Below are positions 43,352 through 62,212 of a stretch of DNA of 64,000 nt, piece after piece. Origin of the DNA: SAR202 cluster bacterium (lineage in GTDB: Bacteria; Chloroflexota; Dehalococcoidia; UBA6926; VFHL01). Position 1 is the stretch's first letter, and the number at the start of each line of letters is the position of its first letter. The stretch covers positions 23,966 through 87,965 of the forward strand of contig VFHL01000001.1 in assembly GCA_009392005.1 (NCBI GenBank), read 5' to 3'. The position numbers and the translations under genes were made by a program. The notes beneath the pieces are model-generated. The model searched no databases. It had not been told where the DNA came from and saw nothing but the letters and a program-made list of their open reading frames with translations.

Positions 43352-43467
43352 AAATAATTCGACCTAGGTATTTTTGTTGACCCTGAGCGGTTTTCCCGTT
43401 GAAGGTGGTGGATGGAATACAAGCGCTTACTCAATTTGGACACCATGTGTTTTGTTGTTGTGTCTGT

Positions 43468-45396: not shown

Positions 45397-45984
45397 ATGA
45401 ATAGAGCTGTGTTTTTGGATAGAGATGGCGTGATAAATCGATTAGTGCATCGCTCGCAAGATACAGGGGATGAATGGGATTCACCGTACCTGCTTTCTGA
45501 AATTGAGATTATTGAAGGTGTAGGTGAGGCGATTCAAAAGATCAATGGCTTGGGATTTCTTGCAATCATTGTGTCAAATCAGCCCGGGGTTGCGAAGGGT
45601 AAGTGCGATTTAGATTTTCTAGATAAAGCGACTGATTTCATACGATCTAAATTGTTACAACAGAATGCTTTTATCGATGACGTCTATTATTGCTTACATC
45701 ATCCGGATGCAGTAAACGAAGCATATCGGATCATTTGCGAATGCCGCAAGCCAAAACCTGGTCTTCTTTTCCAAGCGGCTCAGGATCATGAGATTGATTT
45801 ATCAAGGTCTTATATGATCGGGGACCGTATCACTGATATCTTTGCGGCTGAAGCAGCGGGGTGTGAGGCAATTCTTGTTGACGGTGTAGATACGGGAAGC
45901 TATGATAAATCTCGGTCTGATCGCATACGGTTTGAAGATGATTTGTTGTCTGCAGTCTTACACATTTTAGTACGGGAGACCTAG
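45397..45984 (+). CDS. gmhB: HAD-IIIA phosphatase, D,D-heptose 1,7-bisphosphate phosphatase-like
   Basis: NRAVFLDRDGVINRL, IVSNQPGVAKG, Zn-loop-like CLHHPDAVNEAYRIICECRKPKPG, YMIGDRITDIFAAEAAG. Confidence 0.8.
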   Translation: MNRAVFLDRDGVINRLVHRSQDTGDEWDSPYLLSEIEIIEGVGEAIQKINGLGFLAIIVSNQPGVAKGKCDLDFLDKATDFIRSKLLQQNAFIDDVYYCLHHPDAVNEAYRIICECRKPKPGLLFQAAQDHEIDLSRSYMIGDRITDIFAAEAAGCEAILVDGVDTGSYDKSRSDRIRFEDDLLSAVLHILVRET

Positions 45985-46006
45985 GCATAGTGAAAGAGGA
46001 ATAGAA

Positions 46007-46705
46007 ATGGAAATCTTCTTAGATACAGCCAAAGTTGAGCAAATAAAGCAATGGTTGGGCTATGGCGTACTAGATGGTGTCACGACGAATCCGAGCATTT
46101 TATTTAAGGATGGTGGGTACGATATTCAGGAACGAACTCGTGAGATTGCCGAACTGATTTATCCTCGTCCGCTCAGTGTTGAAGTTAGCACCAACGAGCC
46201 GAAAGAAATGCTTGAACAAGGGAGAGCCTTTGCTAAGTGGGGCGATAATATTGTGGTGAAGATTCCAGTGATAAATGAAGATGGAGTCCCTTGCCTTGAT
46301 GTCGTCAATACTTTAACGAATGAAAATATCAAAGTGAACATGACCGCGGTTATGTCGTTGGGACAGTTTATATTGGGTGCGAAAGCGGGAGCAACCTACG
46401 GTAGCATTTTCGCAGGTCGTGTCGCTGACGAAGGAAATGATTCGTCTGAACTTATTGAGCGATCCGCGCGGTGGCTAAAAACTTGGGGATATGAAACTAA
46501 GATTATTGTTGGCAGTATCCGGACAACCAAGAATATACAAGATGCAGCTGTAGCCGGCGCGCACGTATTAACTATCCCACCTGATCTCTTGGGTAAATGG
46601 GTTGATCATCAATATTCCCGTTCAACGGTAAAGCAGTTCAATATTGATGCTAAGAAGGCGTTTGAGCAGCTGCGAGAGAGTCAAGGTGTCACTGCGTCCC
46701 CGTGA
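46007..46705 (+). CDS. Transaldolase / fructose-6-phosphate aldolase-like (TalC/FSA subfamily)
   Basis: MEIFLDTAKVEQIKQWLGYGVLDGVTTNPSILFKDG, VVKIPVI, KVNMTAVMSLGQFILGAKAGATYGSIFAGRVADEG. Confidence 0.9.
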   Translation: MEIFLDTAKVEQIKQWLGYGVLDGVTTNPSILFKDGGYDIQERTREIAELIYPRPLSVEVSTNEPKEMLEQGRAFAKWGDNIVVKIPVINEDGVPCLDVVNTLTNENIKVNMTAVMSLGQFILGAKAGATYGSIFAGRVADEGNDSSELIERSARWLKTWGYETKIIVGSIRTTKNIQDAAVAGAHVLTIPPDLLGKWVDHQYSRSTVKQFNIDAKKAFEQLRESQGVTASP

Positions 46706-46865
46706 TGAGGTGTAGGTCAGATAGTCTATCTTTAACGCAACGATTTGCGTTGGCTAAAGGTTATACGGACATTTTAAAAGAGGATTTTTTGACATAGTTG
46801 GTTTTCAGGAAATTAATATTTGATTTATAAAAATTGTAGGAATCAATCATAAAATAGGTGAAAAA

Positions 46866-47876
46866 GTGGCTTTAATACATCAGTTAGAAGAAAAGCGGGT
46901 CTTAGTAGCAGGTGGCGCTGGTTTTGTCGGCAGCCAACTTGTGCGTGAACTGTTAGCGATCAATGCTGAAGTTTTGGTTTACGACAGTTTTCTGCATGGT
47001 ACACGTGAGAACTTGATGGATATCCGAAAAGATATCCAGTTGGTTGTTGGGGACCTTCTTGACGAATGGAAGCTTTCACGGACATTTGCTGATTTTCGTC
47101 CCGAGTATGTTTTTGATTTTGTTGGAGATACCTATGTTCCAACTGCTTATGATGTCCCCAAAAGGTTTTTCCGTATTAATGTTGAAGGTACGATCAATAT
47201 TTTGATGGCGTCTAAGATGCATGATGTTGAACGGGTGATCTATATCTCTTCAACGGAAGTCTATGGAGAAGCACAATCCATTCCGATGAAGGAAGACCAC
47301 ATATTGGATCCATTGAATACATATGCGGTTAGTAAGCTTGCGGCTGATCGCGTGTGTTTCACATTTCAAAAAGAACACGATATTCCTGTCATTATTGCAA
47401 GAATCTACAATTGTTATGGTCCAAGAGAATCAGAGCCATATGTGATTCCAGAGATTATTACTCAATTAGATAAAAGCGATGTGGTTAATCTTGGAAATAT
47501 TGAGGCAAGGCGTGATTTCACGTATGTTGCCGATACAGCGCGTGGATTGATTAATGTTCTCTGCTCAGATATTCCTGATGGTGAAGCGGTCAATGTTGGG
47601 TCGGGTAAGTCGTACAGCATTAAAGAGCTTGTATCTATCATTGCCGAACTAATGGGAAAAAATGATTATGAAATCAAAATTGATCCAAAGCGTTTACGAC
47701 GTCTGGATATTGAAGTGTTCCAAAGTGATAGCTCAAAACTACATGCTGCGACAGGTTGGCAACCAACGATAGACATACATCAAGGAATGCAACAGACGAT
47801 TGATTGGTTTAATGCTCATGGTCGGCGATGGAGTTGGGAAGATTGGGTAGATGGAACGGTCTTATACGATGCCTAA
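46866..47876 (+). CDS. NAD-dependent sugar epimerase/dehydratase (SDR)
   Basis: VLVAGGAGFVGSQLVREL, ISSTEVYGEA, NTYAVSKLAADRVC; GTG start. Confidence 0.88.
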   Translation: MALIHQLEEKRVLVAGGAGFVGSQLVRELLAINAEVLVYDSFLHGTRENLMDIRKDIQLVVGDLLDEWKLSRTFADFRPEYVFDFVGDTYVPTAYDVPKRFFRINVEGTINILMASKMHDVERVIYISSTEVYGEAQSIPMKEDHILDPLNTYAVSKLAADRVCFTFQKEHDIPVIIARIYNCYGPRESEPYVIPEIITQLDKSDVVNLGNIEARRDFTYVADTARGLINVLCSDIPDGEAVNVGSGKSYSIKELVSIIAELMGKNDYEIKIDPKRLRRLDIEVFQSDSSKLHAATGWQPTIDIHQGMQQTIDWFNAHGRRWSWEDWVDGTVLYDA

Positions 47877-48672
47877 TGAGGGAATTGAGCAAGACACCAG
47901 CTCCGTGTTTGGTAGTTTTGCCGCGTATTATGATCTCCTCTATAGTGAGAAGGATTACGGCGATGAGAGTGAATTTCTTCGCAAAGTTTTTCAACAATAC
48001 AGTCAAAATGATGTGCGCTCTATTTTGGATATCGGTTGTGGTACCGCTAGCCATGGTGTTCAGTTAAGTTTACGTGGATATGATGTCACCGGTTTTGACC
48101 TGTCACATGAGATGATTGCTTTAGCGCATAAAAAAGTACAAGACGCTGGAGCGTCAATGTCCCTGCATACAATGAATATGATTGATTTTGCGTTCGATCA
48201 ATCTTTTGATAGTGCGATCTGTATGTTTGCAGTTTTGGGGTATGTGACGGAGACAAATGATTTGATCTCGGCACTTCGAAATATACGGCAACACTTACCC
48301 GAAGGCGCACTTTTTGTTTTTGATGTTTGGAATGGTTTAGCAGTTTGTCATGAGATGCCAAGTGAACGTATGAAGACTGTCACATCCGGAGATATTCGAG
48401 TGAGACGGTTTATACGGCCTGAGCTTGATGTGGTAAATCACGTATGTCATAACTATTATAATCTTGTAGTGACTCGTGATGATCAGATCGTTCAGGAAAC
48501 CGAAGAGGTGCATACGATGCGATTCTTCTTTCCTCAAGAGTTGGATTACTATTTGCAACAAGCGGGATTTCGCATGTTGAAATTATCACCATTTCTCGAA
48601 ATGGATGGAGTGGTTGATGAGACGGTGTGGAATGTCAGTGTTGTAGCTCAAGCGGTGAGACAAGATTTATGA
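47869..48672 (+). CDS. Class I SAM-dependent methyltransferase
   Basis: SVFGSFAAYYDLLYSEKDYGDESEFL, SILDIGCGTASHGVQLSLRGYDVTGFDLSHEMI. Confidence 0.88.
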   Translation: MPNEGIEQDTSSVFGSFAAYYDLLYSEKDYGDESEFLRKVFQQYSQNDVRSILDIGCGTASHGVQLSLRGYDVTGFDLSHEMIALAHKKVQDAGASMSLHTMNMIDFAFDQSFDSAICMFAVLGYVTETNDLISALRNIRQHLPEGALFVFDVWNGLAVCHEMPSERMKTVTSGDIRVRRFIRPELDVVNHVCHNYYNLVVTRDDQIVQETEEVHTMRFFFPQELDYYLQQAGFRMLKLSPFLEMDGVVDETVWNVSVVAQAVRQDL

Positions 48673-49781
48673 TACCTGTCTGTGAACCAACTCTTACTGG
48701 TAAAGAGCTGGAATATGTTACGGAATGCCTTACGACCAATTGGATATCCTCTCGTGGACGTTTCCTAGAAGAATTCCAAGATCAATTCGCGGAATATTGT
48801 TCGTGCAAGTATGGCATTGCAACCACAAATGGGACTACTGCATTGCACCTAGCTCTTGCTGCGCTTGAGATTGGCGAGGGAGATGAGGTGATCGTTCCAG
48901 CATTTACGATGGCTGCTTGTATCGATGCAATTATGTACACAGGAGCGAAGCCTGTGCTCGTTGATGCAACTGTTGACACGTGGTCAATGGATGTCAGCAA
49001 GGTGGAAGAGAAGATTTCTTCTAAAACTAAAGCCATTATGGCGGTACATATATATGGGCACCCCTGTGATATGGATCATTTGGCGCAATTAGCGAAACGT
49101 TATAACATCGCAATTCTTGAAGACGCTGCTGAAGCGCATGGTGCTGAATACAAGGGGCAAAAAATTGGCAGCATCGGCGATATTTCTGCGTTTAGTTTTT
49201 ATGCGAACAAAATCATTACCACTGGCGAAGGGGGAATGGTTGTTACGAATAATGAAGAGCTTGCTGATCGTGCACGACGCTTAGCTGATTTGGCTCATTC
49301 ACCCGATCAACGTTTCGTTCATACAGAAGTTGGATTTAATTATCGTATGACGAATATGCAGGCTGCTTTGGGGGTCGCACAAATGACGGCGATTGATGAG
49401 TTCGTCGAGGCTCGACGAACTCATGCACATTCGTATAATCAGCAGTTGCAAGAGGTGCCGGGGCTGACTTTTCCCGTTGAGAAAAGCTGGGCAAAAAACG
49501 TTTATTGGATGTACGGTATTCTTGTTGATGAGGCTGTTTTTGGTATATCGCGTGATGAATTGATGGCGAGTTTACGGGAAAAGGGAATTGAAACACGTGC
49601 CTTTTTTTATCCCATGCATCAACAACCTGGTTTTCAAGACCAAGGGCTGTTTCACCAGGAAGAATATCCAGTCGCCGAAAAATTAGGGATGACCGGATTA
49701 TATCTTCCGTCTAGCAGCGGGTTAACTGAGTCACAGATTGCGGAGGTTTGCGCCGCGGTCGTAGACATTGCAGAGCAGTAA
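48669..49781 (+). CDS. DegT/DnrJ/EryC1/StrS sugar aminotransferase
   Basis: MIPVCEPTLTGKELEYVTECLTTNWISSRGRFLEEFQDQFAEY, TNGTTALHLAL, FSFYANKIITTGEGGMVVTN; ATGA overlap with upstream gene. Confidence 0.93.
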   Translation: MIPVCEPTLTGKELEYVTECLTTNWISSRGRFLEEFQDQFAEYCSCKYGIATTNGTTALHLALAALEIGEGDEVIVPAFTMAACIDAIMYTGAKPVLVDATVDTWSMDVSKVEEKISSKTKAIMAVHIYGHPCDMDHLAQLAKRYNIAILEDAAEAHGAEYKGQKIGSIGDISAFSFYANKIITTGEGGMVVTNNEELADRARRLADLAHSPDQRFVHTEVGFNYRMTNMQAALGVAQMTAIDEFVEARRTHAHSYNQQLQEVPGLTFPVEKSWAKNVYWMYGILVDEAVFGISRDELMASLREKGIETRAFFYPMHQQPGFQDQGLFHQEEYPVAEKLGMTGLYLPSSSGLTESQIAEVCAAVVDIAEQ

Positions 49782-49824
49782 GGGCTTCATTGTTGTTGAT
49801 TGAGGAGTTGTCGGGTGACAAGAT

Positions 49825-50619
49825 TTGTTTCGAATCCAAAAAATCTTAAAGGTATGGATAGGAAAGAATGGCGGCAAAATCTCCACATCGACTTTTGAGC
49901 TTCGTGGGCCGAACGTCACTAGGCAGAAAAGCGTTGTTTTGGGGGCTAAAAATATTTTTCATCGTATGGGGCTACAGGTACTAAGCGCAGGATACAATCT
50001 TGTGGTGAGCCCTGATCGGCCTGATCGCTTACTTTTTTACCAAAGAATTTTTAATGATATTGAGATGGTGAGTGGCGATATTGTTGAGTGTGGTGTTTGG
50101 CGTGGTGAGAGCATGTCAGCATTCGCAATTCTTACCCAGGCCGAAGAGATTGAGCGACATATATGGGGATTTGATTCGTTCGAAGGATTGCCGGAACCAA
50201 CTATCGAAGATCGGGCGTCATCCTCTTTTGAGGCAGAAAAAGGCTGGTATTCTGGCCCGAATCAGAAAGATGTGATGCTTCGGCTGCAAGCGGCTGGCAT
50301 TGATGATGTGACAAGAACGAAGGGTGTTACATTAGTGAAGGGATGGTTTGAAGATACACTGGCAGACTATCAAGGAGAGATCGGTTTATTGCATCTAGAT
50401 GCGGATCTCTATGATTCCACAAAATGTGCATTAGAGTTCCTATGGCCAAAGGTTTCTGTTGGTGGTGTTGTTGTCCTAGATGAATATCATGTTCCTGAAA
50501 ACTGGGCGGGTGAGAAGAAGGCGGTTGACGAGTATTTCGCATCCTCTTTTTCTGATGGAAGCGCAATACTACATGAGGATCCTATTTCTGGCCGTTTCTG
50601 GATTAAGAAGATTCGTTAA
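49825..50619 (+). CDS. TylF/MycF-type methyltransferase
   Basis: VSGDIVECGVWRGESMSAFAIL, IWGFDSFEGLPEP, GLLHLDADLYDSTKCALEFLWPKVSVGGVVVLDEYHVPENWAGEKKAVDEYF. Confidence 0.88.
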   Translation: MFRIQKILKVWIGKNGGKISTSTFELRGPNVTRQKSVVLGAKNIFHRMGLQVLSAGYNLVVSPDRPDRLLFYQRIFNDIEMVSGDIVECGVWRGESMSAFAILTQAEEIERHIWGFDSFEGLPEPTIEDRASSSFEAEKGWYSGPNQKDVMLRLQAAGIDDVTRTKGVTLVKGWFEDTLADYQGEIGLLHLDADLYDSTKCALEFLWPKVSVGGVVVLDEYHVPENWAGEKKAVDEYFASSFSDGSAILHEDPISGRFWIKKIR

Positions 50620-50697: not shown

Positions 50698-51549
50698 TCA
50701 TGGTTTCTCTTGAAAAAGGTGGATGTATTCTCGTTCTGTTAGATTGTTTCTTATAGTCGTTGTGATCGTAATTGCTGCCGCCGTTGGAAGAGCAGTTGCA
50801 TATAATCCGAGAGCTATGAACATGAAGCTATCGATTAGGATCGGACCAATTTGAATTGAAAATTGTAGGACGAGATCTAAAACACCTGCGGCTGTCAGGA
50901 ACAAATAAGGGCTTGAAAAGACTTGTCCCGCGATGTTGAGGAGCCACCAACGCTGCTCCAGCATGTCTGTATAGGTCGCTTGTGCGGGATCAAAGTCAGT
51001 TTCAATCGAATCCGGGACAAGTGTTTTTTCGCTATGACCCTTGAGGTGCCGCATTCGTGCTTCAATGACTGTTGCATGAGAATCATGGACAGCCAGTTTG
51101 ATGAGCAACCAGGATGCTGTTGCAGATAACCCTAGCGCGATCACGAGCAAGCTTGGATTTGATGCAAAGACTCCAATTGTTATGCCTCCGAACACACACG
51201 GGGTTACAATCGCGTCATTAATACGGTCCAGATACTCTCCGGTCAAGCTACTAATATTTTTGAAACGTGCGATTTTTCCGTCACAATAGTCCAAAACGAT
51301 ACTGAGCATGTAGATCCCAGATGCGATTGCCATTATCTCACGCGTACCAGTGGCAAAAAGTCCCGCGGCAATGATTCCGATTGCTAGGCCAAACAAAGTG
51401 ATTTGGTTCGGAGTTATCGGGGTTCGTATCAATATCCATACTAAATAAATCGAGATATGGCCAGGGATAATGTCAGAGAGATTCAGTCCCTGCTGGAATT
51501 CTCGCTGTTTGAACGCGGTATTTTTCAAATTACGTAAGGATTTTGACAT
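50698..51549 (-). CDS. CDP-alcohol phosphotransferase family protein in phosphonate operon
   Basis: Complete CAP motif DYCDGKIARFKNISSLTGEYLDRIND (D-x2-D-G-x2-A-R-x8-G-x3-D-x3-D) plus multiple TM. Confidence 0.9.
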   Translation of the reverse strand: MSKSLRNLKNTAFKQREFQQGLNLSDIIPGHISIYLVWILIRTPITPNQITLFGLAIGIIAAGLFATGTREIMAIASGIYMLSIVLDYCDGKIARFKNISSLTGEYLDRINDAIVTPCVFGGITIGVFASNPSLLVIALGLSATASWLLIKLAVHDSHATVIEARMRHLKGHSEKTLVPDSIETDFDPAQATYTDMLEQRWWLLNIAGQVFSSPYLFLTAAGVLDLVLQFSIQIGPILIDSFMFIALGLYATALPTAAAITITTTIRNNLTEREYIHLFQEKP

Positions 51550-51601
51550 TTCGTTTCTCCCGCTTCTATTACACTTGTAATAGTGGTGTTAGGAACATTT
51601 T

Positions 51602-52759
51602 CTAGCTCAGTGATGCGGTCATCTGGTCCCAAGATTCGCTAAGGATGTGCTCCACATCTTCTAATGAAGCGTTAGTAAAGTTATTATCTGCGCGGGCCGG
51701 TGTCAATGCTTCTGAAGCCAAAGCGATCACCGCCTCTTTGGAACCAATAAGATTATTGAGGTTTGAATAGGTGTTGCTGATCGCAAGAATGTTTTTAATG
51801 GTATCTCCGAGCGTCTCATGCGAGTTGAAACCTATTGGTTCAACAAGCCATTGCAATCTATCTGGATCTCTACTGGCGTTAAATTGGAGAACTGGGACGA
51901 TTGTAAAGGCGCACGCTAATCCGTGAGGAACACCGAAGCGCAGTGTGAGTGGATAAGAAATTGAGTGAGAGAGTGTCGTGCGTGTACTGCTAATTGCGAG
52001 TCCTGCGAACAGACTCGATTGAAGCATTCGAGATCTTAAATCTTGATTTTTTAGGTCGTTTAGTAGTTTGGGCAGCGTTGATAAAGCGAGCGGAACGCTT
52101 TGATTGGCAAATGCAGTTGCTACTGGGTTTCTTTGCCTGCTCCACAATGACTCTAAACCTTGGCAGAATGCATCTAAACCGGTTGTAAGGGTTACATCAC
52201 GTGATACGCTGAGACTCAGGGCCGGATCGAGTATTGCGACATTCGGGTTCAAAAGACTTGTAGCAAAAGAGTGTTTCTTACCTGAGGGTCGATCCCATAC
52301 AGTAGCGAATGGAGTAACTTCTGCTCCTGTTCCCGCTGTTGTTGGGATTGCTATCACTGGAATTGGCTGCAGTTCCGGAAGAGTCTCGTTTTTTGTCAGG
52401 TGGGATCGTAGATGGAAAGTGGTTTCGCTGAGAAGACAGGAAAGAATTTTTGCGGTATCGATTGTGCTTCCGCCGCCGAGGCCAATAACACAATCAAAGT
52501 GTTGTTTCTCGAATTGGTTGGCGGCTTGTTCTAGGTCAACGATCTGTGGCTCGGGATCAACGATATCGTAGACGGTTATATTTTTGTTTGGCAGCAGGCT
52601 TGTTAGCTGATTAGTGGTACCTCGTTTTGTTGTCCCGGACGTGGTTACGATAAGGATATTCTTCCAAGGAACAACGTTTGTTACCTCGTTTAAGGTTCCG
52701 ACTCCAAAGATGATTCGAGTCGAATTTTCATATTGGTATGGTGAAATATTGATGTTCAA
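51602..52759 (-). CDS. Iron-containing alcohol dehydrogenase, candidate phosphonoacetaldehyde reductase
   Basis: IIFGVGTLNEV, DCVIGLGGGSTIDTAK, IPTTAGTGAEVTPFATVWD; located between ppd and CAP genes. Confidence 0.85.
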   Translation of the reverse strand: MNINISPYQYENSTRIIFGVGTLNEVTNVVPWKNILIVTTSGTTKRGTTNQLTSLLPNKNITVYDIVDPEPQIVDLEQAANQFEKQHFDCVIGLGGGSTIDTAKILSCLLSETTFHLRSHLTKNETLPELQPIPVIAIPTTAGTGAEVTPFATVWDRPSGKKHSFATSLLNPNVAILDPALSLSVSRDVTLTTGLDAFCQGLESLWSRQRNPVATAFANQSVPLALSTLPKLLNDLKNQDLRSRMLQSSLFAGLAISSTRTTLSHSISYPLTLRFGVPHGLACAFTIVPVLQFNASRDPDRLQWLVEPIGFNSHETLGDTIKNILAISNTYSNLNNLIGSKEAVIALASEALTPARADNNFTNASLEDVEHILSESWDQMTASLS

Positions 52760-52767
52760 AATAAGAC

Positions 52768-53472
52768 CTAGCTGAAAAGAATCCTTGCTTCCGTTAAGTC
52801 TTCAAGAGTATCAATTTCAAACCAGGGTGATCCGTTTGTTGCGAGCAAGTCAAATTCAAAACCTTCGCGTGCCATTTTGTTGAATGCAGCTGTATCGTAT
52901 GATTGGAATTCATTATTTGCCAACATCTCATCAATCGTTTCATGCAATAGGCTTGCAGCTGGGGAAGAAAAGCGTGCGATACCTATCCATTCACCTGCGG
53001 CTTCGTTCAGTGGAATTGATTTGTCTGACTCAACAAACTTGTTGTCTTTTGTACGGACTTTCATCGCTTCTTCATCAATGGATGAGAAGTCGACAACAAG
53101 AGAAGCATTGTTAATTTCGTTTTCCATTAAAATGCCTGAAAGAATTTCTGGAGCATAGATAAGGTCGCCATGTAAATAAAGAAATTCTTCGTTTGGAATC
53201 GTGTTGAGAGCAAACCATAATGAACCCATGTTGTTTGTTTGGGCATAGAAGGGGTTGTGAACATAGCGAATGTCCGGTCCCACGTGCTCTTGAATCTGCT
53301 CGCGCATCGCTCCGACAACCATCGTTATCTGGCTAATTCCTTGGTTGCGTAAGGTTTCGATAGAGCGTGTGATAAGAGAACGATCACCCACTGGTAATAG
53401 CCCTTTTGGAGTATCGTTAGTGAGCGGTCGAAGCCTTGATGAAAGGCCTGCTGCAACAATAATCGCGTGCAT
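52768..53472 (-). CDS. Sugar-phosphate-type nucleotidyltransferase, candidate phosphonate cytidylyltransferase
   Basis: MHAIIVAAGLSSRLRPLTNDTPKGLLPVGDRSLITRSIETL; 234 aa; operon position. Confidence 0.85.
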   Translation of the reverse strand: MHAIIVAAGLSSRLRPLTNDTPKGLLPVGDRSLITRSIETLRNQGISQITMVVGAMREQIQEHVGPDIRYVHNPFYAQTNNMGSLWFALNTIPNEEFLYLHGDLIYAPEILSGILMENEINNASLVVDFSSIDEEAMKVRTKDNKFVESDKSIPLNEAAGEWIGIARFSSPAASLLHETIDEMLANNEFQSYDTAAFNKMAREGFEFDLLATNGSPWFEIDTLEDLTEARILFS

Positions 53473-53474
53473 TT

Positions 53475-54038
53475 TTATCCGAGATGCGCGCTAAACCGGT
53501 CTCTAATTTCAACAGCAGTTAGATCAACGCGGCCTATTCCAGGGACGGGGGCAATGCTACATTTTACTAATATCAGGTGTGGGCCCGGAGAAGTTTTGCA
53601 TGCCGCTATCTCTGTCTTGATTCCTTCATCGTCATCAACGCGGTGAACGCTTTGGTATCCAGCTGCACTTGCTATGTCGTCTAGCGCGATTTGTGAGCTA
53701 ATTGTGGGTTGTGCACCTGTTGACTCATATGATTCGTTATCAAGGATAACGTGGATAAGGTTTGCTGGAGTCTCGGACGCAATCAGGGCGAGCGTTCCCA
53801 TACTCATAAGGGCGCTTCCATCACCTTCTAAAATGACAGTCTCGCGCTCCGGATTTAGTAAAGAGACACCGAGAGCTACTGAAGAAGTCAAGCCCATTGA
53901 GCCGATCATGTAGAAATTCCCTGGGCGGTCTTTTGCAGCATATACTTCGCGGGTAATCATTCCCGTTGTACTAAGAACAGCTGTTTCATCATCAAGCTGT
54001 TCAAGAATAGATTCGATCGCTTTTGAGCGTGCAATCAT
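53475..54038 (-). CDS. Phosphonopyruvate decarboxylase, TPP-binding (C-terminal/beta) subunit
   Basis: MIARSKAIESILEQLDDETAVLSTTGMITREVYAAKDRPGNFYMIGSMGLTSSVALGVSLL, TPP motif GDGSALMSMGTLALIASETPANLIHVILDN; ATGA overlap with upstream subunit. Confidence 0.88.
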   Translation of the reverse strand: MIARSKAIESILEQLDDETAVLSTTGMITREVYAAKDRPGNFYMIGSMGLTSSVALGVSLLNPERETVILEGDGSALMSMGTLALIASETPANLIHVILDNESYESTGAQPTISSQIALDDIASAAGYQSVHRVDDDEGIKTEIAACKTSPGPHLILVKCSIAPVPGIGRVDLTAVEIRDRFSAHLG

Positions 54039-54535
54039 GATAACAGTCCTGCTCTTACTAGGAGGGCCCCGGGTACAGATTGTTCTTGTATTTCTGTGAG
54101 GAGGCGATCTAGTGTGGCTTCCCAATCCTCTACTTCCAGCTGCTCCACCGGCATGTCCAGTGTCGAAAGCATTTCTGGAGTCTTCACACCCATGATCCAA
54201 TGCTCTGGGGCATCGTTTGGTGGCCCCCCGAACCCACGCCATCCGATGATTAATAATGCGGGGACCTTATACAACAAGTTGAATGATGTTAACGGGTTAA
54301 TGATATTTCCGACGCCAGAGTTTTGCATAACAACGGCACCATTCTTTCCGCTTAATGCCGCGGCACTAACAACGCCCAAGGCCACATCTTCCCGAACAGC
54401 TGGCACGTATTTAATTTCTGTATCATTCAAAAGATCGTTATATGCGGGGCCGAAGGTCGAATCAGGAACGCCAGCAAAAAAGCCAAATCCTCGGGATTTT
54501 AAAGCAGCCCAAAATTCAGTGGATGGTATAGTCAT
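54035..54535 (-). CDS. Phosphonopyruvate decarboxylase, N-terminal/alpha subunit
   Basis: GFGFFAGVPDSTFGPAYNDLL, AVVMQNSGVGNIINPLTSF, ALLIIGWRGFGGPPNDAPEHWIMG. Confidence 0.88.
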   Translation of the reverse strand: MTIPSTEFWAALKSRGFGFFAGVPDSTFGPAYNDLLNDTEIKYVPAVREDVALGVVSAAALSGKNGAVVMQNSGVGNIINPLTSFNLLYKVPALLIIGWRGFGGPPNDAPEHWIMGVKTPEMLSTLDMPVEQLEVEDWEATLDRLLTEIQEQSVPGALLVRAGLLS

Positions 54536-54543
54536 GGATTCAC

Positions 54544-56280
54544 TTACCTCGTTGAAATTGTTGCGATTTCTTTTTCTGCGATTTTTACATCTTCCGGAGT
54601 ATGTATTTCCATCCAACCTTTCGGTGTCTCGAGTCCGTGAATTTCATACCCTTTGTCAATCATTTCTTGAAGCAGATCTGTCACGCCAGCTCGTTGGAGC
54701 GATTCGGCTTCGTGGAATTGCCCTGATGAGTTAGCGATACTTTCATCATAAATCTCTAAAAGGGCACGTGCTCCTCCGGGGGAGAAGTAGGCGAGTCCAA
54801 TAAACTCGTAGTCAGCTTTTTCTAACTCAATATTCTTGCCGACTTGAACGATCTTATTTACGGAAGCTGGTTTCAAGCTACGGTATTGAGGTTCATAACT
54901 TTTACTACTAACCACGAGATCAAGCCGTTTATCAATATCATGTTTGTGGTAGGTGTATGAATTGTCAACGCCGAGCACAATGTCTTCGGCCGAACCAATT
55001 AAGCGGTCAATGATACCTGCGTCAAAGAGAATATCTGAATATATGAGCAGGAATCCCTCGTGCATATTGTCTCGTGCGGTGATGAGAGAATGTAGGGAAT
55101 GGTGTTCCGCATATGAGGTGTTATCAATGAGGTCTAGATTTGGCGCAGATTTGTAGGTTTCATCAAATTGTGCGCCTGCGTTCCCGCGAACGACGACTAC
55201 CTGTTTCAGTCCCGACTTTCGTATTGCTTCGAGCTGATAATCAAGAAGGCTTTTCCCGCCTACAGGGATCAAGGATTTTGGCGCATCGGGAAAGTTTGCG
55301 TCTTGCCCTGCAGAGGGAATGATTGTCGGTATTTGCAGAGAGCGACTGCGCTCTCGATCGAGATCAAGGATTTTGTCAAACCCGACACTTGACGCAACTT
55401 CTTTTACGGGTGCGATTTGCGCATCGACTTGGAAGCTACTTCCAGTGTCCAGTATCGTTTTTGCTGCATCTTGCATTGCTTTGTACGATGCCCGTAATAA
55501 TTGGTTTGCATGGATTATGACATCGAACCCGAGCTCTGCGAGTTCGGTATCTGGGTGTTGGTTGTATGTAGTGGGAACACTGACAAGGATTGGGCGTCTT
55601 CCAGCTGCTTTACAAATATTTTCATATTCCTTCACAAATTGGAATAAGTCATCAGGGTCACGCTGGTTTGAGTGAATCATCACTCCATCAACGCCGGCTT
55701 CAATGTATTTGGTGGCTCTGTTCAACGCGTCTTCTAAGCCTGTACCAGCGATCAAGCTCTCGATTCGCGAAATCACCATGAACTCTTTTGTCAGGGTCAC
55801 TTGCTTCCCATATGCGATCTTTGCTGCAAAAGTATCGGGATCTTCAAGTGCTTGTGATGCGGAATTATCTAGGCTGTTTCGTTTTGGGAAAACTTTATCT
55901 TCGATGATGACAGCAGAAATTCCCATGCGTTCGAGATTTCTGACAAGGTATTGGAATTGTGCTGGCTCGCCACCCGTATCACCGTCTACAACTAAAGGAA
56001 TTGACGTGACGTTTAGTATTTCGTTGATTGTATGCAATCGCGATTCAATACCGATGATGGAGGCATCAGGAAATCCTTTTGTTGCGGAATCTGTCAGGCT
56101 ACTTTCCCATATCCCGTCAAATGTAATAGATTCGCCATCTATGTTGCCTACAGCGTTTTCTGCTGCGATTCCACTCAGTCCGCTGTGAGCTTCCATTAAT
56201 CGCACGAATCCCTTTTGTTCAATTGCAGTGGTAAGAGATCGAATTCGTTCCGATGGTGTTATTTGGTCTCTTGTAGTCAT
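54544..56280 (-). CDS. pepM: Phosphoenolpyruvate mutase fused to C-terminal nucleotidyltransferase-like domain
   Basis: PepM signature EDKVFPKRNS (EDK-x5-NS, residues 127-136), DGDTGGEPAQFQYLVRNLERMG; from about residue 317 an NTase-like fold IPTIIPSAGQDANFPDAPKSLIPVGGKSLLDYQLEAI. Confidence 0.93.
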   Translation of the reverse strand: MTTRDQITPSERIRSLTTAIEQKGFVRLMEAHSGLSGIAAENAVGNIDGESITFDGIWESSLTDSATKGFPDASIIGIESRLHTINEILNVTSIPLVVDGDTGGEPAQFQYLVRNLERMGISAVIIEDKVFPKRNSLDNSASQALEDPDTFAAKIAYGKQVTLTKEFMVISRIESLIAGTGLEDALNRATKYIEAGVDGVMIHSNQRDPDDLFQFVKEYENICKAAGRRPILVSVPTTYNQHPDTELAELGFDVIIHANQLLRASYKAMQDAAKTILDTGSSFQVDAQIAPVKEVASSVGFDKILDLDRERSRSLQIPTIIPSAGQDANFPDAPKSLIPVGGKSLLDYQLEAIRKSGLKQVVVVRGNAGAQFDETYKSAPNLDLIDNTSYAEHHSLHSLITARDNMHEGFLLIYSDILFDAGIIDRLIGSAEDIVLGVDNSYTYHKHDIDKRLDLVVSSKSYEPQYRSLKPASVNKIVQVGKNIELEKADYEFIGLAYFSPGGARALLEIYDESIANSSGQFHEAESLQRAGVTDLLQEMIDKGYEIHGLETPKGWMEIHTPEDVKIAEKEIATISTR

Positions 56281-56705: not shown

Positions 56706-57701
56706 TTGAAAACGATTGTTACTGGTGGTTCTGGATTGATCGGGAGCCATTTGACAAAGCGACTTATCGAACTTGGCAGAGATGTCATAGTTGTGGACGA
56801 CTTTTCCCGTGGGAATGAGTTGAACTTTAGTGATCTTGGAATCAAACCTGAAATCAAGAAAATTGATTTGCGTGATCTTGAAAAACTGAAGACAGAGTTT
56901 AAGGGTGTAGAATCTGTTTTTCATTTAGCTGCACGCGTGGGCAGTTTAGATTGGCTCCATGGGACGAAAATGCGTGATTTGGCGTGGTTTCAAGATAACT
57001 GTGCGATCGATGCGAATGTGTTTCGCGCATGTATTGAGAACAGCGTTGGAAGAATTGTTTACCCATCAAGTGCAGCAGTTTATCCGATTCATGAACAAGA
57101 GCATGCGGGCGCAGTTTTCTCTGAAGACGATCTAGATTTGGCACATGTCCGCACACAAACGATTGACCCTGACGGTGGGTATGGATGGGCAAAATTAGTA
57201 GGGGAAGTCCAATTGTCTTGGGCGGCTGACATTAAGATTAGTGTTGCCCGCTTATTCAATGTTTATGGAGAAAATTTTGCGCTTGATCAAACAGCACCCG
57301 TTATACCGTCCCTGATCCGGCGACTTCTTGAAAATCCCAAGGGCCCATTTGTTGTTTGGGGAGATGGAGAGCAGACACGAGATTTCCTCTATGTGTCTGA
57401 TTGCGTAGATGCCTTGATCAAGCTAGAAGACATCGCTACGAGCCCAATGAATATTGTCAATCTTGGGGCTGGTTCAAATGTGTCAATTGGCAATATTGCG
57501 AAATTGATTGTTGAGATATCTGGCTTTGATGCGGAAATTCAGTTTGATGTAGAAAAACCAGTAGGGCCGATAAGCCGACAACCGGATATTTCAAAAGCGA
57601 ATGCGCTTCTAGGATGGTATCCGGAGGTGGATTTTGAAACTGGGTTGCGTCGTGTTTACTCTTGGTTGCAGAAGCGTTTGAACGAGGCGTCCAGATCATA
57701 G
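56706..57701 (+). CDS. NAD-dependent sugar epimerase/dehydratase (SDR)
   Basis: TIVTGGSGLIGSHLTKRLIELGRDVIVVDDFSRGN, YPSSAAVYP, YGWAKLVGEVQLS. Confidence 0.88.
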   Translation: MKTIVTGGSGLIGSHLTKRLIELGRDVIVVDDFSRGNELNFSDLGIKPEIKKIDLRDLEKLKTEFKGVESVFHLAARVGSLDWLHGTKMRDLAWFQDNCAIDANVFRACIENSVGRIVYPSSAAVYPIHEQEHAGAVFSEDDLDLAHVRTQTIDPDGGYGWAKLVGEVQLSWAADIKISVARLFNVYGENFALDQTAPVIPSLIRRLLENPKGPFVVWGDGEQTRDFLYVSDCVDALIKLEDIATSPMNIVNLGAGSNVSIGNIAKLIVEISGFDAEIQFDVEKPVGPISRQPDISKANALLGWYPEVDFETGLRRVYSWLQKRLNEASRS

Positions 57702-57810
57702 GCGGTTGCTGCGGTACAACCATTGAACACATTAGTGCCATGGTCAACGAATTACCGGATACAATAGGTGCCCGTCGCTAGTTAATAATGGTGAATAGAA
57801 AGGAAGAGTT

Positions 57811-58080
57811 ATGAAAATTATAATCAGTGCGGAACTTACAAAAGGTTACGCGCTTTGGAAAAATCTTTTTTTGGGTACAGATTCTCAAAGAGAAAAATAT
57901 GGGGTTAAAGTTTTGGCATATGGTCATGCCCAAGATAATGAAAATAAAATTTACCAAGTTCTTGAAGTAGAGTCTATGGAGAAAATGCAAGAAGGTTTGC
58001 AAGACCCTGAGATAGCTAAACTGAGAACAGATGCAGGTGTTAATTTAGATTCCCAAGAAGTTGTATTGTTAGTTGAGTGA
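57811..58080 (+). CDS. Small conserved-looking protein of unknown function (89 aa, possibly DUF3764-like)
   Basis: MKIIISAELTKGYALWKNLFLGTDSQREKYGVKVLAYGHAQDNENKIYQVLEVESMEKMQEGLQDPEIAKLRTDAGV...; SD GGAAGAG; overlaps the following GT2 start. Confidence 0.65.
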   Translation: MKIIISAELTKGYALWKNLFLGTDSQREKYGVKVLAYGHAQDNENKIYQVLEVESMEKMQEGLQDPEIAKLRTDAGVNLDSQEVVLLVE

Positions 58081-58951
58081 CATTTCGGTTGTGATTCCAA
58101 CAAAAAATCGTGCTGATCATATTGGGTTGTGCTTGGAGTCTATTTTTGGCCAAACCATGCTGCCACGCGAGTTAGTAATCGTGGATTCTAGTGATACCCG
58201 TGAATTGGAGGTCATTTTAGAGCGTTTTGATGGCCGTGGTGTTTCTATCGAGTACATTTTTATGCAGGCCAATCCGATGGAAGCCAGGAATATTGGAGCA
58301 GAGTACACAAGTGGTGATATCTTGACGTTTATTGATGACGATACGGTTTTGGATCAAGATTGCTTGATGGAAATCAGCCGAGTGTTTGAACAGGATCAAC
58401 GAGGAATCGTTGGTGCGACGACAGCAGAGTACACTACGCCAGACAGTAATATGGTTCGCAATTTTGTATTTTTAAGAATCCTTTTGCCAATGTATCAAGT
58501 GTTTGCAAGGATATTTTTGTTATTACGCTATGGTGATGGAAAGCTATTAATTTCCGGGCATAGTACGATTATCCGTCCTGGCAGTATAAAGTCACCAGTT
58601 TCTGTTGAATACGTAACCGGTGCGAATATGTCGTTCAGAAGAGCCGTGTTTTTTGAATTTAAATTTGATAAAGCAATCTCGTTTGAAGATAACGATATTT
58701 CTTTCAGAGTTTCTAGAAAATACGATATTTTGTACGTCCCTTCGGCCCGCTATCAAAACAACCGAGCACTTTCGGGAGGTCAAGGAGGGGTTTGGTGGTA
58801 TATCAAAGATATTCGGGGGTATAGGAATTACTTTCGAAAGAACTTTCCCGATACTTTAAAATATCGTATAGCTTTTTATTGGTCTGCTCTTGGGATGTTT
58901 ATTCGAGGTTTGGTTGGTGTAGCCTTGAGACCAATTTTGAGACGAAGATGA
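58073..58951 (+). CDS. Glycosyltransferase family 2
   Basis: DISVVIPTKNRADHIGLCLESIFGQTMLPRELVIVDSSD, LTFIDDDTVLDQDCL, VTGANMSFRRAVFFE; TTG start. Confidence 0.88.
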   Translation: MSDISVVIPTKNRADHIGLCLESIFGQTMLPRELVIVDSSDTRELEVILERFDGRGVSIEYIFMQANPMEARNIGAEYTSGDILTFIDDDTVLDQDCLMEISRVFEQDQRGIVGATTAEYTTPDSNMVRNFVFLRILLPMYQVFARIFLLLRYGDGKLLISGHSTIIRPGSIKSPVSVEYVTGANMSFRRAVFFEFKFDKAISFEDNDISFRVSRKYDILYVPSARYQNNRALSGGQGGVWWYIKDIRGYRNYFRKNFPDTLKYRIAFYWSALGMFIRGLVGVALRPILRRR

Positions 58952-59050
58952 ATAGTTTGTCTTGAATGTGCAATCTAGATGTTTTATGGGCTGATTACAT
59001 GTGGAAAGTGAAATGAAAAGGTTTGATTGTGTGATTGGAAGGTTTAAATA

Positions 59051-59929
59051 ATGTGGTATTGGGTGCGGAAAATTGAGGGCCTGGCTTTGATCCCATTGAT
59101 TCCACTGATTCTGTGGTATTTTCGTCGCAAGAATATTACGCATACTGTTCGTTGCCGTCGTTGCGAGGCCTCGCTTCTTATGGACGCACGCCGATTCAGT
59201 GAAGGATGGTGTGAGCGTTGTTTTGATGAGATGCTCTATGATGATCCTGTTGGTTTTCATCAACTTCTCTATAGCGAGATCAATCAAAATGCTGTTCAAC
59301 CTGAATTGAAGCCTGCTTTCGACTGGTTTTTTGACTCATTGGTCAAGCGAGTCAAAACAGGGAATGTGTTGGATGTAGGTTGCGAGACGGGATACGTTTT
59401 GTCACGTTTGGAAATCCCTGAAGACAACAAATATGGATTAGATGTTGTTGCGGCTTCTTTGAAAGTTGCGAAAGCATCGATTAATGAGGGAAATTTTTCG
59501 CTGGGGGATGCCGCTAATATCCCTTATAAGTCGGATTCTTTTGATTATGTTATATGCACTGAAGTATTAGAACATTTGGAAAATCCGGCTGCGGCCATTG
59601 AGGAGTGTTTCCGAGTGTTGAAGCCTGACGGTACTGCCTTCTTTACCGTTCCAAATGGAGCAGGTGTCGCAGGTAGATATCTGTGTTCACATATCCAATT
59701 TTTTACTTATGGCGATATTCTCACCCTTGTGGAAGGCAGCGGATTCAAGGTTGTCGAGGGGGAAAAACATGGGCTATATGTTCCGTTTGTGACTTACACC
59801 TTGGCTTTTATATCAGGGATACTGAAAAGACAATTACCGTTCTCAAGAGCGTTGCTTGGCGTGAAGGTTCCGGAACCCTTATCGATGACCTTTGTTTTGG
59901 AGTGTCGCAAGTTTGACGGTAATGATTAG
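59051..59929 (+). CDS. Methyltransferase with N-terminal hydrophobic segment and zinc-ribbon-like CxxC pairs
   Basis: ALIPLIPLILWYF; CRRCEAS...CERCFDEM; GNVLDVGCETGYVLSRL, FDYVICTEVLEHLENPAAAIEECFRVLKPDG. Confidence 0.85.
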   Translation: MWYWVRKIEGLALIPLIPLILWYFRRKNITHTVRCRRCEASLLMDARRFSEGWCERCFDEMLYDDPVGFHQLLYSEINQNAVQPELKPAFDWFFDSLVKRVKTGNVLDVGCETGYVLSRLEIPEDNKYGLDVVAASLKVAKASINEGNFSLGDAANIPYKSDSFDYVICTEVLEHLENPAAAIEECFRVLKPDGTAFFTVPNGAGVAGRYLCSHIQFFTYGDILTLVEGSGFKVVEGEKHGLYVPFVTYTLAFISGILKRQLPFSRALLGVKVPEPLSMTFVLECRKFDGND

Positions 59930-61251
59930 TCCTGTGTTGCTTGATCACCAGTTCCAATTCCGATGTATCGGAAGCCGGCACGTTTAATTTTTACGCTATC
60001 AAGCATGTTATGGGCATCTAGAATTATGGCTTGCCTCATGGGTGTTTTTAGTTTTTTGAAATCTAATTTGTGGAATTCTGGCCATGGTGTGGCCAGTATG
60101 GCTGCATCGCATCCCGCCACGGCTGAATAGACATCGTCAATGAACGTAAACCCTGTATATTTTGAAAGTTCATCCCTATCTACCATGGGGTCATAGGTGC
60201 GGATCTTCGCGCCTTTAGCAAGTAACATCTCTATGATCTCAAGCGCTACGGAACGCCGGAGTGTACTTGTATCTGGTTTGTACGTTAACCCCAAAATCGC
60301 AATCGTCGCTCCTTCAAATGATTGGAGGGTGTTGGTAATTTTTTCAATCACTACCGTTGTTTGTCGAGAATTCACTTCGATAACGCTATCTAAGAGGCTA
60401 GAGATCTGTTTCTTGTCTTTTGCTATCTCCCTTAGTACTTGAACATCACGTGCGAGAGTCCCACCTGAAAAGCCTAGTCCCGGTGTTAGAGGCGCGTTTG
60501 CACTTATCCGACTATCTAATTTAAGCGCTTCGATGACTTTCAACGTGTCGGCACCCACGCGATCTGAAATATTTGCGAATTCATTAATAAAACTTATTCC
60601 AGTCGCAAGGTAGGCATTTAGAGCATGTTTTGTCATTTCAGCAGTACGCAAATTTGTCCAGACTACAGTCGCGTCGATTTCTGAGTAGAGTTGTTTCACG
60701 TGTTTTGTTACGGTTGCATTTTCAGTGCCCACTACAATGAAATCAGGATGCATAAATCGCTGAATTGCTTGTCCGAGGCGAAGATTCTCTGGGGAATATG
60801 CGACTCCATTAATTGATGACTGAGCGAAAGATTTTATTGTCTCTGATAATTTTTCGCTTGTACCAACGGGGACTTGGCTATTAATGATTACTGAAGCGTT
60901 TTCTTGCAAACATGGTGCAATTAATTTCGCAGTGTCGAAAAGGTTAGAAATATTTACGTGGTCATCTTGATCAATTGGAGTGTCGTACGCAAGAATCACG
61001 AATTCAGCAGACGATATCAGATCACAATCTTGGGTAGCAAATTGGAGTCTTCCAGAAGCGATATTCTTAGAAATTAAATGTTCTAGTTCAGGCTCATAAA
61101 TTGGAAGGAATCCATTATTAAGAGCGTCACATTCTGTTTGGTTGTCAGCTATCGCGATTACATCAAATCCCAATTCGGCTAAACATCCCGAGGTAACCAG
61201 ACCAAGATGCCAGAGGCCAAAAACACAAACTTTTGTGGAGTTTGATTCCAT
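59926..61251 (-). CDS. UDP-glucose/GDP-mannose dehydrogenase family protein lacking the canonical catalytic Cys
   Basis: VCVFGLWHLGLVTSGCLAELGFDVIAIA, YSPENLRLGQAI, AEMTKHALNAYLATGISFINEFANIS, PGLGFSGGTLARD in place of GFGGSCFPKD, AILGLTYKPDTSTLRRS. Confidence 0.88.
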   Translation of the reverse strand: MESNSTKVCVFGLWHLGLVTSGCLAELGFDVIAIADNQTECDALNNGFLPIYEPELEHLISKNIASGRLQFATQDCDLISSAEFVILAYDTPIDQDDHVNISNLFDTAKLIAPCLQENASVIINSQVPVGTSEKLSETIKSFAQSSINGVAYSPENLRLGQAIQRFMHPDFIVVGTENATVTKHVKQLYSEIDATVVWTNLRTAEMTKHALNAYLATGISFINEFANISDRVGADTLKVIEALKLDSRISANAPLTPGLGFSGGTLARDVQVLREIAKDKKQISSLLDSVIEVNSRQTTVVIEKITNTLQSFEGATIAILGLTYKPDTSTLRRSVALEIIEMLLAKGAKIRTYDPMVDRDELSKYTGFTFIDDVYSAVAGCDAAILATPWPEFHKLDFKKLKTPMRQAIILDAHNMLDSVKIKRAGFRYIGIGTGDQATQD

Positions 61252-61264
61252 TAGATAGTCGTCT

Positions 61265-62212
61265 TTATAAGTGCTTTAAAAGCCGCTGTATTGCTATACG
61301 TATTGCTTCAGAGGATGAGTGCTTAGGTTGCCATCCAAGAGTTTTCATTTTGGTTATATCGTACTCAAGCTTCGGAACATCTCCAGGCCACCCACGCGCG
61401 CCTCCAGTGGTCGTTACTTCCACATTCTGTAAGTTCATCTCTTCCATTACAATTTCACTAATTTCCATCACATTCGTTGATGTGTCGGTTCCTAAGTTGA
61501 ACACATCATATTGGGCGTCGGAGTGAGTGAAAGCATAGATCATTCCATCAATGCATTCCTCTACGAGGAAAAATGGTTTGACCTGTTTGCCGTCCCCGAG
61601 CACTTCTAACTTTTTGGGGTTGTTCCGTAGTTTCACAATGAAATCATGTAAGACCCCATGTCCCATTCGAGCTCCAATGACGTTTCCGAAACGAAACATT
61701 TTTGCACGCAAGTCGTATAGGTGGCAGTAAGCAGTGATCAATCCTTCACATGCCATTTTGGCAGCACCATAGAGGGATACGGGTAGAGTCGGCCCAGCAC
61801 TTTCCCTTGCTGGCAAGCTGATGCTCTCTCCGTAGACAGTGGCGCTTGAGGCGAAAAGTATATCCTTAACACCCGTTGAACGCATTGCCTCCAACACATT
61901 GAAAGTGGCGATGGTGCAGTGCTCTAAATCTAACCTAGGGTTTTCTGTACCGCCTGGGATATCGGTGTTCGCACCGAGGTGCCACACCACATCTTTTCCT
62001 GCAACGACCTCTTTCAATTTTTCAGGATCAAGGAGGTCACCTTGAATAAGTGTGAATCGAGGATGTTTTTTCAGTTCCTCAATCCATTCCATTTTTCCGG
62101 ATGAAAAATTATCGTAACCGGTTACTGTATGACCATCCTCCAAAAGACGTTCACATAAATGGCTACCAATAAACCCGGCGCAGCCGGTAACCAAGTGATT
62201 TCCAACATCCAT
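61265..62212 (-). CDS. NAD-dependent sugar epimerase/dehydratase (SDR)
   Basis: LVTGCAGFIGSHLCERLLEDGHTVTGYDNFSSG, FASSATVYGES, SLYGAAKMACE. Confidence 0.9.
   Translation of the reverse strand: MDVGNHLVTGCAGFIGSHLCERLLEDGHTVTGYDNFSSGKMEWIEELKKHPRFTLIQGDLLDPEKLKEVVAGKDVVWHLGANTDIPGGTENPRLDLEHCTIATFNVLEAMRSTGVKDILFASSATVYGESISLPARESAGPTLPVSLYGAAKMACEGLITAYCHLYDLRAKMFRFGNVIGARMGHGVLHDFIVKLRNNPKKLEVLGDGKQVKPFFLVEECIDGMIYAFTHSDAQYDVFNLGTDTSTNVMEISEIVMEEMNLQNVEVTTTGGARGWPGDVPKLEYDITKMKTLGWQPKHSSSEAIRIAIQRLLKHL

What the first reader, a model, noticed from the sequence alone, without database searches (positions are those of the whole stretch)
50698..56280. Six-gene phosphonate biosynthesis and transfer operon
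Seen in sequence: PepM with an intact EDK-x5-NS signature, a split phosphonopyruvate decarboxylase, a stand-alone nucleotidyltransferase, an Fe-type alcohol dehydrogenase and a CDP-alcohol phosphotransferase. All are on the minus strand with ATGA overlaps or short gaps. Established: PepM plus Ppd give phosphonoacetaldehyde, Fe-ADH-family enzymes can reduce it to 2-hydroxyethylphosphonate (HEP), and nucleotidyl activation is common in phosphonate pathways. Inference: HEP is activated as CMP-HEP and transferred by the CAP enzyme to a lipid or glycan acceptor. No AEP transaminase lies in the operon. The surrounding genes are almost all surface-glycan genes, so a phosphonate-modified envelope polymer is likely.
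Basis: partly seen in the sequence, partly recalled or inferred. Interest (0 to 1): 0.85.

Follow-up and report, generated by a model that had tools for sequence, protein, structure and literature searches.

The report
Phosphonate-lipid operon with degenerate fused domain
A marine Dehalococcoidia-class bacterium (Chloroflexota) carries a compact six-gene set that very probably makes the carbon-phosphorus compound 2-hydroxyethylphosphonate, loads it onto CMP and attaches it to a membrane molecule; the pathway type is known, but the activating-enzyme domain fused to its first enzyme lacks a key catalytic residue here and in nearly all relatives examined.

Summary
The six genes are real, intact and operon-like (gaps 8, -4, 2, 8, 52 bases). 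PepM (EDKVFPKRNS) passes TIGR02320; the split decarboxylase, when joined, passes the phosphonopyruvate (not sulfopyruvate) decarboxylase cut-off; the Fe-ADH fits best the phosphonate Fe-ADH model, though below its cut-off. That fused domain folds like PntC/LicC (pLDDT 92.8; best PDB match PntC) but lacks the pyrophosphate-site Arg in 74 of 77 fused relatives, and an Asp is mostly His. All 28 stand-alone partners keep the Arg. The stand-alone enzyme (52768-53472) is therefore the likely CMP-HEP maker. The gene set recurs in other Dehalococcoidia/SAR202 genomes and a Patescibacteria genome. One class member has a Fom1-type PepM fusion beside Ppd, Fe-ADH and a CAP, an independent hint that CMP-HEP feeds the CAP. 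LicD is absent from the genome, and no AEP transaminase passes its cut-off. Best reading: a HEP version of the CAP-type phosphonate operons seen (with AEP transaminase) in Proteobacteria, most likely making a HEP-lipid. It is a new variant of a known kind; the altered fused domain is the interesting part.

The parts
54544..56280 (-). PepM (PEP mutase, aa ~18-305) fused to a C-terminal LicC/PntC-fold domain (aa ~313-578) that lacks the GXG(T/S)R Arg and has His in place of the Asp of the EID motif
   Evidence: TIGR02320 322.8 bits (cut-off 319.55); PF13714 and PF12804; motif columns; AF2 and Foldseek of the fused domain
54035..54535 (-). PpdA, TPP-binding alpha part of a split phosphonopyruvate decarboxylase
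   Evidence: TIGR03297 122.8 vs sulfopyruvate decarboxylase alpha 87.3 bits; joined PpdA+PpdB 323.3 over cut-off 312.5
53475..54038 (-). PpdB, beta part of the split phosphonopyruvate decarboxylase (GDGS...N motif); ATGA overlap with PpdA
   Evidence: TIGR03297 203.0 vs sulfopyruvate decarboxylase beta 167.0 bits
52768..53472 (-). Stand-alone LicC/PntC-like nucleotidyltransferase with the Arg, Lys, Asp and EID residues intact; likely CTP:HEP cytidylyltransferase
   Evidence: Best PDB match LicC 1jyk, 1.4e-16, then PntC 6pd1; residues
51602..52759 (-). Fe-type alcohol dehydrogenase, likely phosphonoacetaldehyde reductase; D-x3-Q in place of D-x3-H at the metal site
   Evidence: TIGR03405 best at 308.6 bits but below its cut-off 423.7; D-x3-Q shared by the operon ADHs and by the Segatella 'phosphonoacetaldehyde reductase'
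50698..51549 (-). CDP-alcohol phosphotransferase (CAP), membrane enzyme with the complete eight-residue motif; likely transfers HEP from CMP-HEP to a lipid-type acceptor
   Evidence: PF01066 48.0 over cut-off 22; best PDB match AF2299 by sequence and fold; motif

Best explanation
The operon makes 2-hydroxyethylphosphonate (HEP) and attaches it to a membrane acceptor. PepM turns PEP into phosphonopyruvate; PpdAB decarboxylates it to phosphonoacetaldehyde; the Fe-ADH reduces this to HEP; the stand-alone nucleotidyltransferase (52768-53472), not the PepM-fused one, makes CMP-HEP from CTP; and the CAP transfers the HEP group from CMP-HEP to a hydroxyl on a lipid (diacylglycerol-like) or lipid-linked glycan, releasing CMP. 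The fused PntC-like domain has lost the pyrophosphate-binding Arg but keeps the fold, the CTP alpha-phosphate Lys and the Asp107 and Glu216 equivalents; it most likely binds a nucleotide-phosphonate or phosphonate (channelling or regulation) rather than running the CTP reaction. Shown by sequence: gene content, family membership, motif gain and loss, recurrence. Inferred: all reactions, HEP as product, the acceptor and the role of the fused domain.
For: PepM signature and TIGR02320 over cut-off. Joined PpdAB over the TIGR03297 cut-off while both sulfopyruvate models fall below theirs. The ADH's best model is the phosphonate Fe-ADH, with the D-x3-Q site shared across phosphonate operons and the Segatella enzyme. 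The best own-genome AEP-transaminase hit is under cut-off and fits an aspartate-glyoxylate aminotransferase model better. Genome lacks LicD. PepM fusion, Ppd, Fe-ADH, stand-alone NTase and CAP recur together in L117, L023/L024/L116, L115 and L047. L121 couples a Fom1-type PF01467-PepM fusion with Ppd, Fe-ADH and CAP and no second NTase; Fom1's CyTase is known to make CMP-HEP (PMC6697681). AEP transaminase replaces the ADH beside NTase, CAP, PepM fusion and Ppd in L097, L133 and L135. The Arg is lost in 74/77 fused and kept in 28/28 stand-alone domains; R15A left under 10% activity in Tde-PntC (PMC6697681).
Against: The Fe-ADH is under its equivalog cut-off. The stand-alone NTase could activate a sugar- or inositol-phosphate instead (it also scores against sugar-1-phosphate enzymes). 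CAPs in these operons are only about 20-24% identical, and several relatives lack the final motif Asp, so acceptors may differ or some may be unrelated recruits. The CAP model is only moderate (pLDDT 72.5). Loss of one Arg does not prove the fused domain inactive.
Confidence: 0.62

Rival explanations
1. Same HEP pathway, but the PepM-fused domain is an active cytidylyltransferase for HEP (as the unrelated Fom1 domain is), and the stand-alone NTase activates another molecule, for example a sugar- or inositol-phosphate used by the CAP.
For: Rice et al. read fused NTase domains as nucleotidyltransferases (PMC6697681). The fused domain keeps the fold, Lys25 and Asp107 equivalents. CAP plus MobA-like NTase pairs are known for inositol (IPCT-DIPPS 4mnd matches).
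Against: The Arg needed by Tde-PntC is missing in 74/77 fused domains and the EID Asp is mostly His. The stand-alone NTase is closest in the PDB to LicC and PntC, and AEP-type clusters pair an intact stand-alone NTase with the same kind of fused protein.
Confidence: 0.15
2. The pathway ends in a HEP-decorated surface polysaccharide: the CAP acts on a lipid-linked glycan and the HEP ends up on an exported polymer.
For: Neighbouring genes are nucleotide-sugar and glycosyltransferase genes. In Segatella, PepM, Ppd and the ADH sit in an O-antigen-type locus.
Against: Segatella uses a CDP-glycerol-glycerophosphotransferase-type protein, not a CAP. CAP relatives with structures mostly act on CDP-DAG, DAG or inositol phosphates. 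Neighbouring genes on the other strand are not part of the operon.
Confidence: 0.17
3. A sulfonate pathway: decarboxylase and Fe-ADH act on sulfopyruvate and sulfoacetaldehyde to give isethionate.
For: Split decarboxylases resemble sulfopyruvate decarboxylase. The Fe-ADH's best PDB match, 6jko, is deposited as methanol dehydrogenase; from memory it is a sulfoacetaldehyde reductase.
Against: PepM signature plus TIGR02320. Joined PpdAB passes the phosphonopyruvate model, not the sulfopyruvate models. Phosphonate Fe-ADH 308.6 vs SarD 141.1 bits.
Confidence: 0.02
4. HEP is an intermediate to a different phosphonate (for example methylphosphonate via an MpnS-type oxygenase elsewhere in the genome).
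For: HEP is the MpnS substrate in marine producers (PMC8931226).
Against: No oxygenase in the operon or among the neighbouring genes scanned; the genome outside the window was not searched for MpnS.
Confidence: 0.04

Closest known systems
CAP-type AEP clusters of Proteobacteria (e.g. Mycetohabitans plasmid NZ_CP132742.1, Roseomonas marmotae plasmid NZ_CP061094.1)
   Same: CAP, stand-alone phosphocholine-cytidylyltransferase-family NTase, PepM fused to a LicC-like domain lacking the Arg, Ppd
   Different: They have a 2-aminoethylphosphonate transaminase where the window has the Fe-ADH, a single-chain Ppd, and extra genes
PntC / LicC pathway (Treponema denticola PntC-AEPT, S. pneumoniae LicC; PMC6697681)
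   Same: CTP activation of a phosphonate by a MobA-like cytidylyltransferase; the stand-alone NTase has the same key residues
   Different: AEP or phosphocholine rather than HEP; the Lic pathway uses LicD-type transfer to glycans, whereas the window has a CAP and no LicD
Fom1 of fosfomycin biosynthesis and Fom1-like PepM fusions (L120, L121)
   Same: PepM fused to a nucleotidyltransferase domain, Ppd and ADH giving HEP; L121 also has a CAP
   Different: Fom1-type domain is PF01467 at the N-terminus; the window has PF12804 at the C-terminus and a separate NTase
HEP-type glycan locus of Segatella copri (NZ_CP085933.1)
   Same: PepM, Ppd, Fe-ADH annotated phosphonoacetaldehyde reductase with D-x3-Q
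   Different: CDP-glycerol glycerophosphotransferase family protein and O-antigen genes instead of a CAP; Fe-ADHs only 28% identical

Membership tests
PEP mutase (TIGR02320) | Model cut-off and EDK-x5-NS motif | tested here: met
   322.8 vs 319.55 bits; EDKVFPKRNS
Phosphonopyruvate decarboxylase (TIGR03297) | Model cut-off over the whole enzyme, above sulfopyruvate decarboxylase | tested here: met
   Joined PpdA+PpdB 323.3 vs cut-off 312.5; sulfopyruvate alpha 85.5 of 147.95, beta 164.5 of 221.5. Neither half alone reaches the cut-off, as expected for a split enzyme.
Phosphonate Fe-ADH / phosphonoacetaldehyde reductase (TIGR03405) | Equivalog cut-off 423.7 bits | tested here: not met
   308.6 bits, the best of all NCBIfam models. 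The NCBI-labelled Segatella reductase scores only 133.5, so the model does not cover the whole group. Not filed as a TIGR03405 member, only as working like one.
PntC/LicC-type cytidylyltransferase (stand-alone NTase) | GXG(T/S)R..PK signature plus metal and EID residues | tested here: met
   AGLSSRLRPLTNDTPK (Arg and Lys aligned with LicC/PntC; Ser in place of the second Gly), Asp107, Glu216 and Asp218 equivalents present
PntC/LicC-type cytidylyltransferase (stand-alone NTase) | Activity on a phosphonate with CTP | not testable with these tools
   Needs enzymology
PntC/LicC-type cytidylyltransferase (PepM-fused domain) | LicC/PntC fold | tested here: met
   AF2 pLDDT 92.8; top Foldseek hits 6pd1/6pd2 PntC, E 5.3e-16, TM 0.75, then LicC
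PntC/LicC-type cytidylyltransferase (PepM-fused domain) | Pyrophosphate-site Arg and EID Asp | tested here: not met
   AGQDANFPDAPK and EIH; Arg column not Arg in 74/77 fused domains; His in 36 of 44 dereplicated rows
CDP-alcohol phosphotransferase (PF01066) | Pfam cut-off and DxxDGxxARx8GxxxDxxxD motif | tested here: met
   48.0 vs 22 bits; DYCDGKIARFKNISSLTGEYLDRIND
Phosphonolipid synthase | Transfer of a CMP-phosphonate to a lipid | not testable with these tools
   Inferred from CAP chemistry and operon context only
AEP pathway | AEP transaminase in operon or genome | tested here: not met
   None in the operon; best genome hit 205 bits vs cut-off 360.8, and it scores higher (323.6) with the BhcA aspartate-glyoxylate aminotransferase model, also below that model's cut-off

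The most novel reading that the evidence does not exclude
The most common nucleotidyltransferase-like domain fused to PEP mutases is not a cytidylyltransferase at all. Across bacteria and archaea it is a conserved, repurposed PntC-like domain (pyrophosphate Arg lost, EID mostly turned into EIH) that binds a nucleotide-phosphonate or phosphonate to pull or gate the unfavourable PepM reaction, while a separate intact enzyme does the activation.
Probability: 0.35. Interest if true: 0.7.

Novelty: new variant of a known kind. Interest (0 to 1): 0.45.

Why it matters
Phosphonates make up 20-25% of high-molecular-weight marine dissolved organic phosphorus (PMC8931226), yet their makers and final forms are poorly known. 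In a term search, the two main marine phosphonate surveys held here (PMC8931226, PMC9381506) do not mention SAR202 or Chloroflexota, and Nitrospina appears only in a reference title. This operon gives a complete, testable HEP-to-membrane pathway in that class. It also questions the assumption that PepM-fused MobA-like domains (about a third of PepM enzymes in PMC6697681) perform the nucleotidyl activation.

Tried and rejected
A sulfonate pathway was rejected by family scores. AEP as product was rejected for lack of a transaminase over cut-off. LicD-type transfer to glycan was rejected because the genome has no LicD (the assembly is about 95% complete). A viral source found no support: no relative in viral contigs and only partial PepM matches in two unannotated phage records. 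Inheritance within the order is unsupported: only 8 other genomes of 393 in the class carry a strong match and none of the order-mates sampled does, so the operon is patchy and probably transferred horizontally, though loss cannot be excluded. No riboswitch or other Rfam RNA near the operon. Promoter and terminator scans were uninformative, with fewer sites than in shuffles. A paper on the early branch points of phosphonate biosynthesis was not in the library. The CAP fold search confirmed the superfamily but not the acceptor.
Full report
Observation. Gaps are 8, -4 (ATGA), 2, 8 and 52 bases, so one transcript is likely. The GC content of the block (45.4%) is slightly above its flanks (about 42.5%).

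The PepM gene encodes 578 aa. Residues 18-296 match PEP mutase (TIGR02320, 322.8 bits against a cut-off of 319.55) and residues 313-578 are a second domain of the MobA/LicC type (PF12804). The operon therefore carries two nucleotidyltransferase-like domains, one fused and one stand-alone. Fused NTase domains are known: a third of PepM enzymes carry a PF12804 domain, and clusters with both a fused and a separate NTase were noted by Rice et al. 2019 (PMC6697681).

Product. PpdA and PpdB each score better with phosphonopyruvate than with sulfopyruvate decarboxylase. Joined end to end they pass the phosphonopyruvate decarboxylase cut-off (323.3 vs 312.5) while both sulfopyruvate models fail. The Fe-ADH's best model is the phosphonate-associated TIGR03405 (308.6 bits), but below the equivalog cut-off of 423.7. 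It has D-x3-Q where most Fe-ADHs have D-x3-H. The same change is found in the ADHs of related phosphonate operons, in a Segatella enzyme annotated as phosphonoacetaldehyde reductase and in PDB 6jko. No gene in the genome passes the AEP transaminase cut-off; the best hit fits an aspartate-glyoxylate aminotransferase model better. HEP is thus the most likely product (inference from established pathway chemistry).

Which domain activates HEP. In Tde-PntC the signature GXG(T/S)RX4-8PK forms the pyrophosphate and alpha-phosphate site; R15A, K25A and K153A leave under 10% activity (PMC6697681). The window's stand-alone NTase has this Arg and Lys and an EID motif. The fused domain has AGQDANFPDAPK (no Arg) and EIH. 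Across relatives, the Arg is kept in 28 of 28 stand-alone NTases from these clusters and is absent in 74 of 77 fused domains. The three exceptions have an Arg by alignment position, and only one resembles the signature. The EID Asp is His in 63 of 74 aligned fused rows. In a set dereplicated to 44 rows, His stands in 36 and one row has a GXGXR-like signature, so this is not an effect of many near-identical Nitrospina sequences. The sample was gathered by similarity to the window's own fusion, so it is not an unbiased survey of all PepM fusions. In a maximum-likelihood tree, fused and stand-alone domains do not mix: the fused ones form two well-supported groups (24 and 4 rows, each 100/99), and the window's domain sits within Chloroflexota. 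AlphaFold gives the fused domain a confident fold (pLDDT 92.8) whose best PDB match is PntC itself, then LicC. So this is a PntC-fold domain with an altered active site. I infer that the stand-alone enzyme makes CMP-HEP and the fused domain has another role. This is not proof of inactivity.

Transfer. The CAP has the complete CAP motif; its closest solved relative is AF2299, by sequence and by fold. The genome has two other CAPs, presumably for ordinary lipids, and no LicD. CAP enzymes mostly work on membrane lipids, so a HEP-lipid, or HEP on a lipid-linked glycan, is the likeliest end product. Nothing here identifies the acceptor.

Comparative evidence. Close relatives of the PepM fusion were found in Dehalococcoidia/SAR202, Thermoplasmata, Lokiarchaeota, Patescibacteria, Marinimicrobia, Nitrospinota and others. 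PepM fusion, Ppd, Fe-ADH, stand-alone NTase and CAP occur together in L117, L023/L024/L116, L115 and L047 in different orders. In L121, a single-contig genome of the same class, a Fom1-type protein (PF01467 plus PepM) lies beside Ppd, Fe-ADH and a CAP, with no second NTase. Since Fom1's domain is known to make CMP-HEP (PMC6697681), this is an independent hint that CMP-HEP is the CAP's donor. In L097 and in plasmids of Roseomonas and Mycetohabitans, the same kind of fused PepM, stand-alone NTase and CAP occur with an AEP transaminase instead of the ADH. The window operon is therefore the HEP counterpart of a known-looking AEP cluster. Only 8 other genomes of 393 sampled in the class have a strong match, and none of the order-mates sampled does.

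Verdict. As a pathway it is a new variant of a known kind. The altered fused domain, shared across at least several phyla in this similarity-gathered sample, is the part a specialist would not expect.

Noticed in passing
L048, L060 and about 40 other Nitrospinota loci: The same PepM fusion stands without Ppd, ADH or NTase nearby; in L048 it lies between genes for a site-2 protease (M50) and a prolyl-tRNA-synthetase-like enzyme. In five genomes checked Ppd is elsewhere (split subunits in at least four) and none has a TIGR03405-type Fe-ADH, so these nitrite oxidisers may be unrecognised phosphonate producers.
   Followed up: partly
L102:6256-11415: Three stand-alone LicC/PntC-like NTases surround a phosphonate-binding protein and an ABC ATPase, with no PepM nearby; two of the three have Val in place of the catalytic Lys. 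Possibly salvage of external phosphonates.
   Followed up: no
L115, L116, L117, L047, L121 CAP genes: CAPs in several related phosphonate operons lack the last Asp of the CAP motif (Ala or Gly instead), while the window's CAP keeps it.
   Followed up: partly
L118:9230-10456: A radical SAM/SPASM protein lies directly beside the PepM fusion in one Dehalococcoidia cluster; another tailoring step is possible.
   Followed up: no
window 45397-50619 and 56706-63277: Neighbouring genes suggest nucleotide-sugar synthesis: GmhB-like phosphatase, transaldolase-like, LegB/LegC-like dehydratase and aminotransferase, TylF methyltransferase, UDP-glucose dehydrogenase, HddC/MurU-like NTase.
   Followed up: partly
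window 42032-45252: Two large minus-strand ORFs (439 and 594 aa) have no Pfam match.
   Followed up: no
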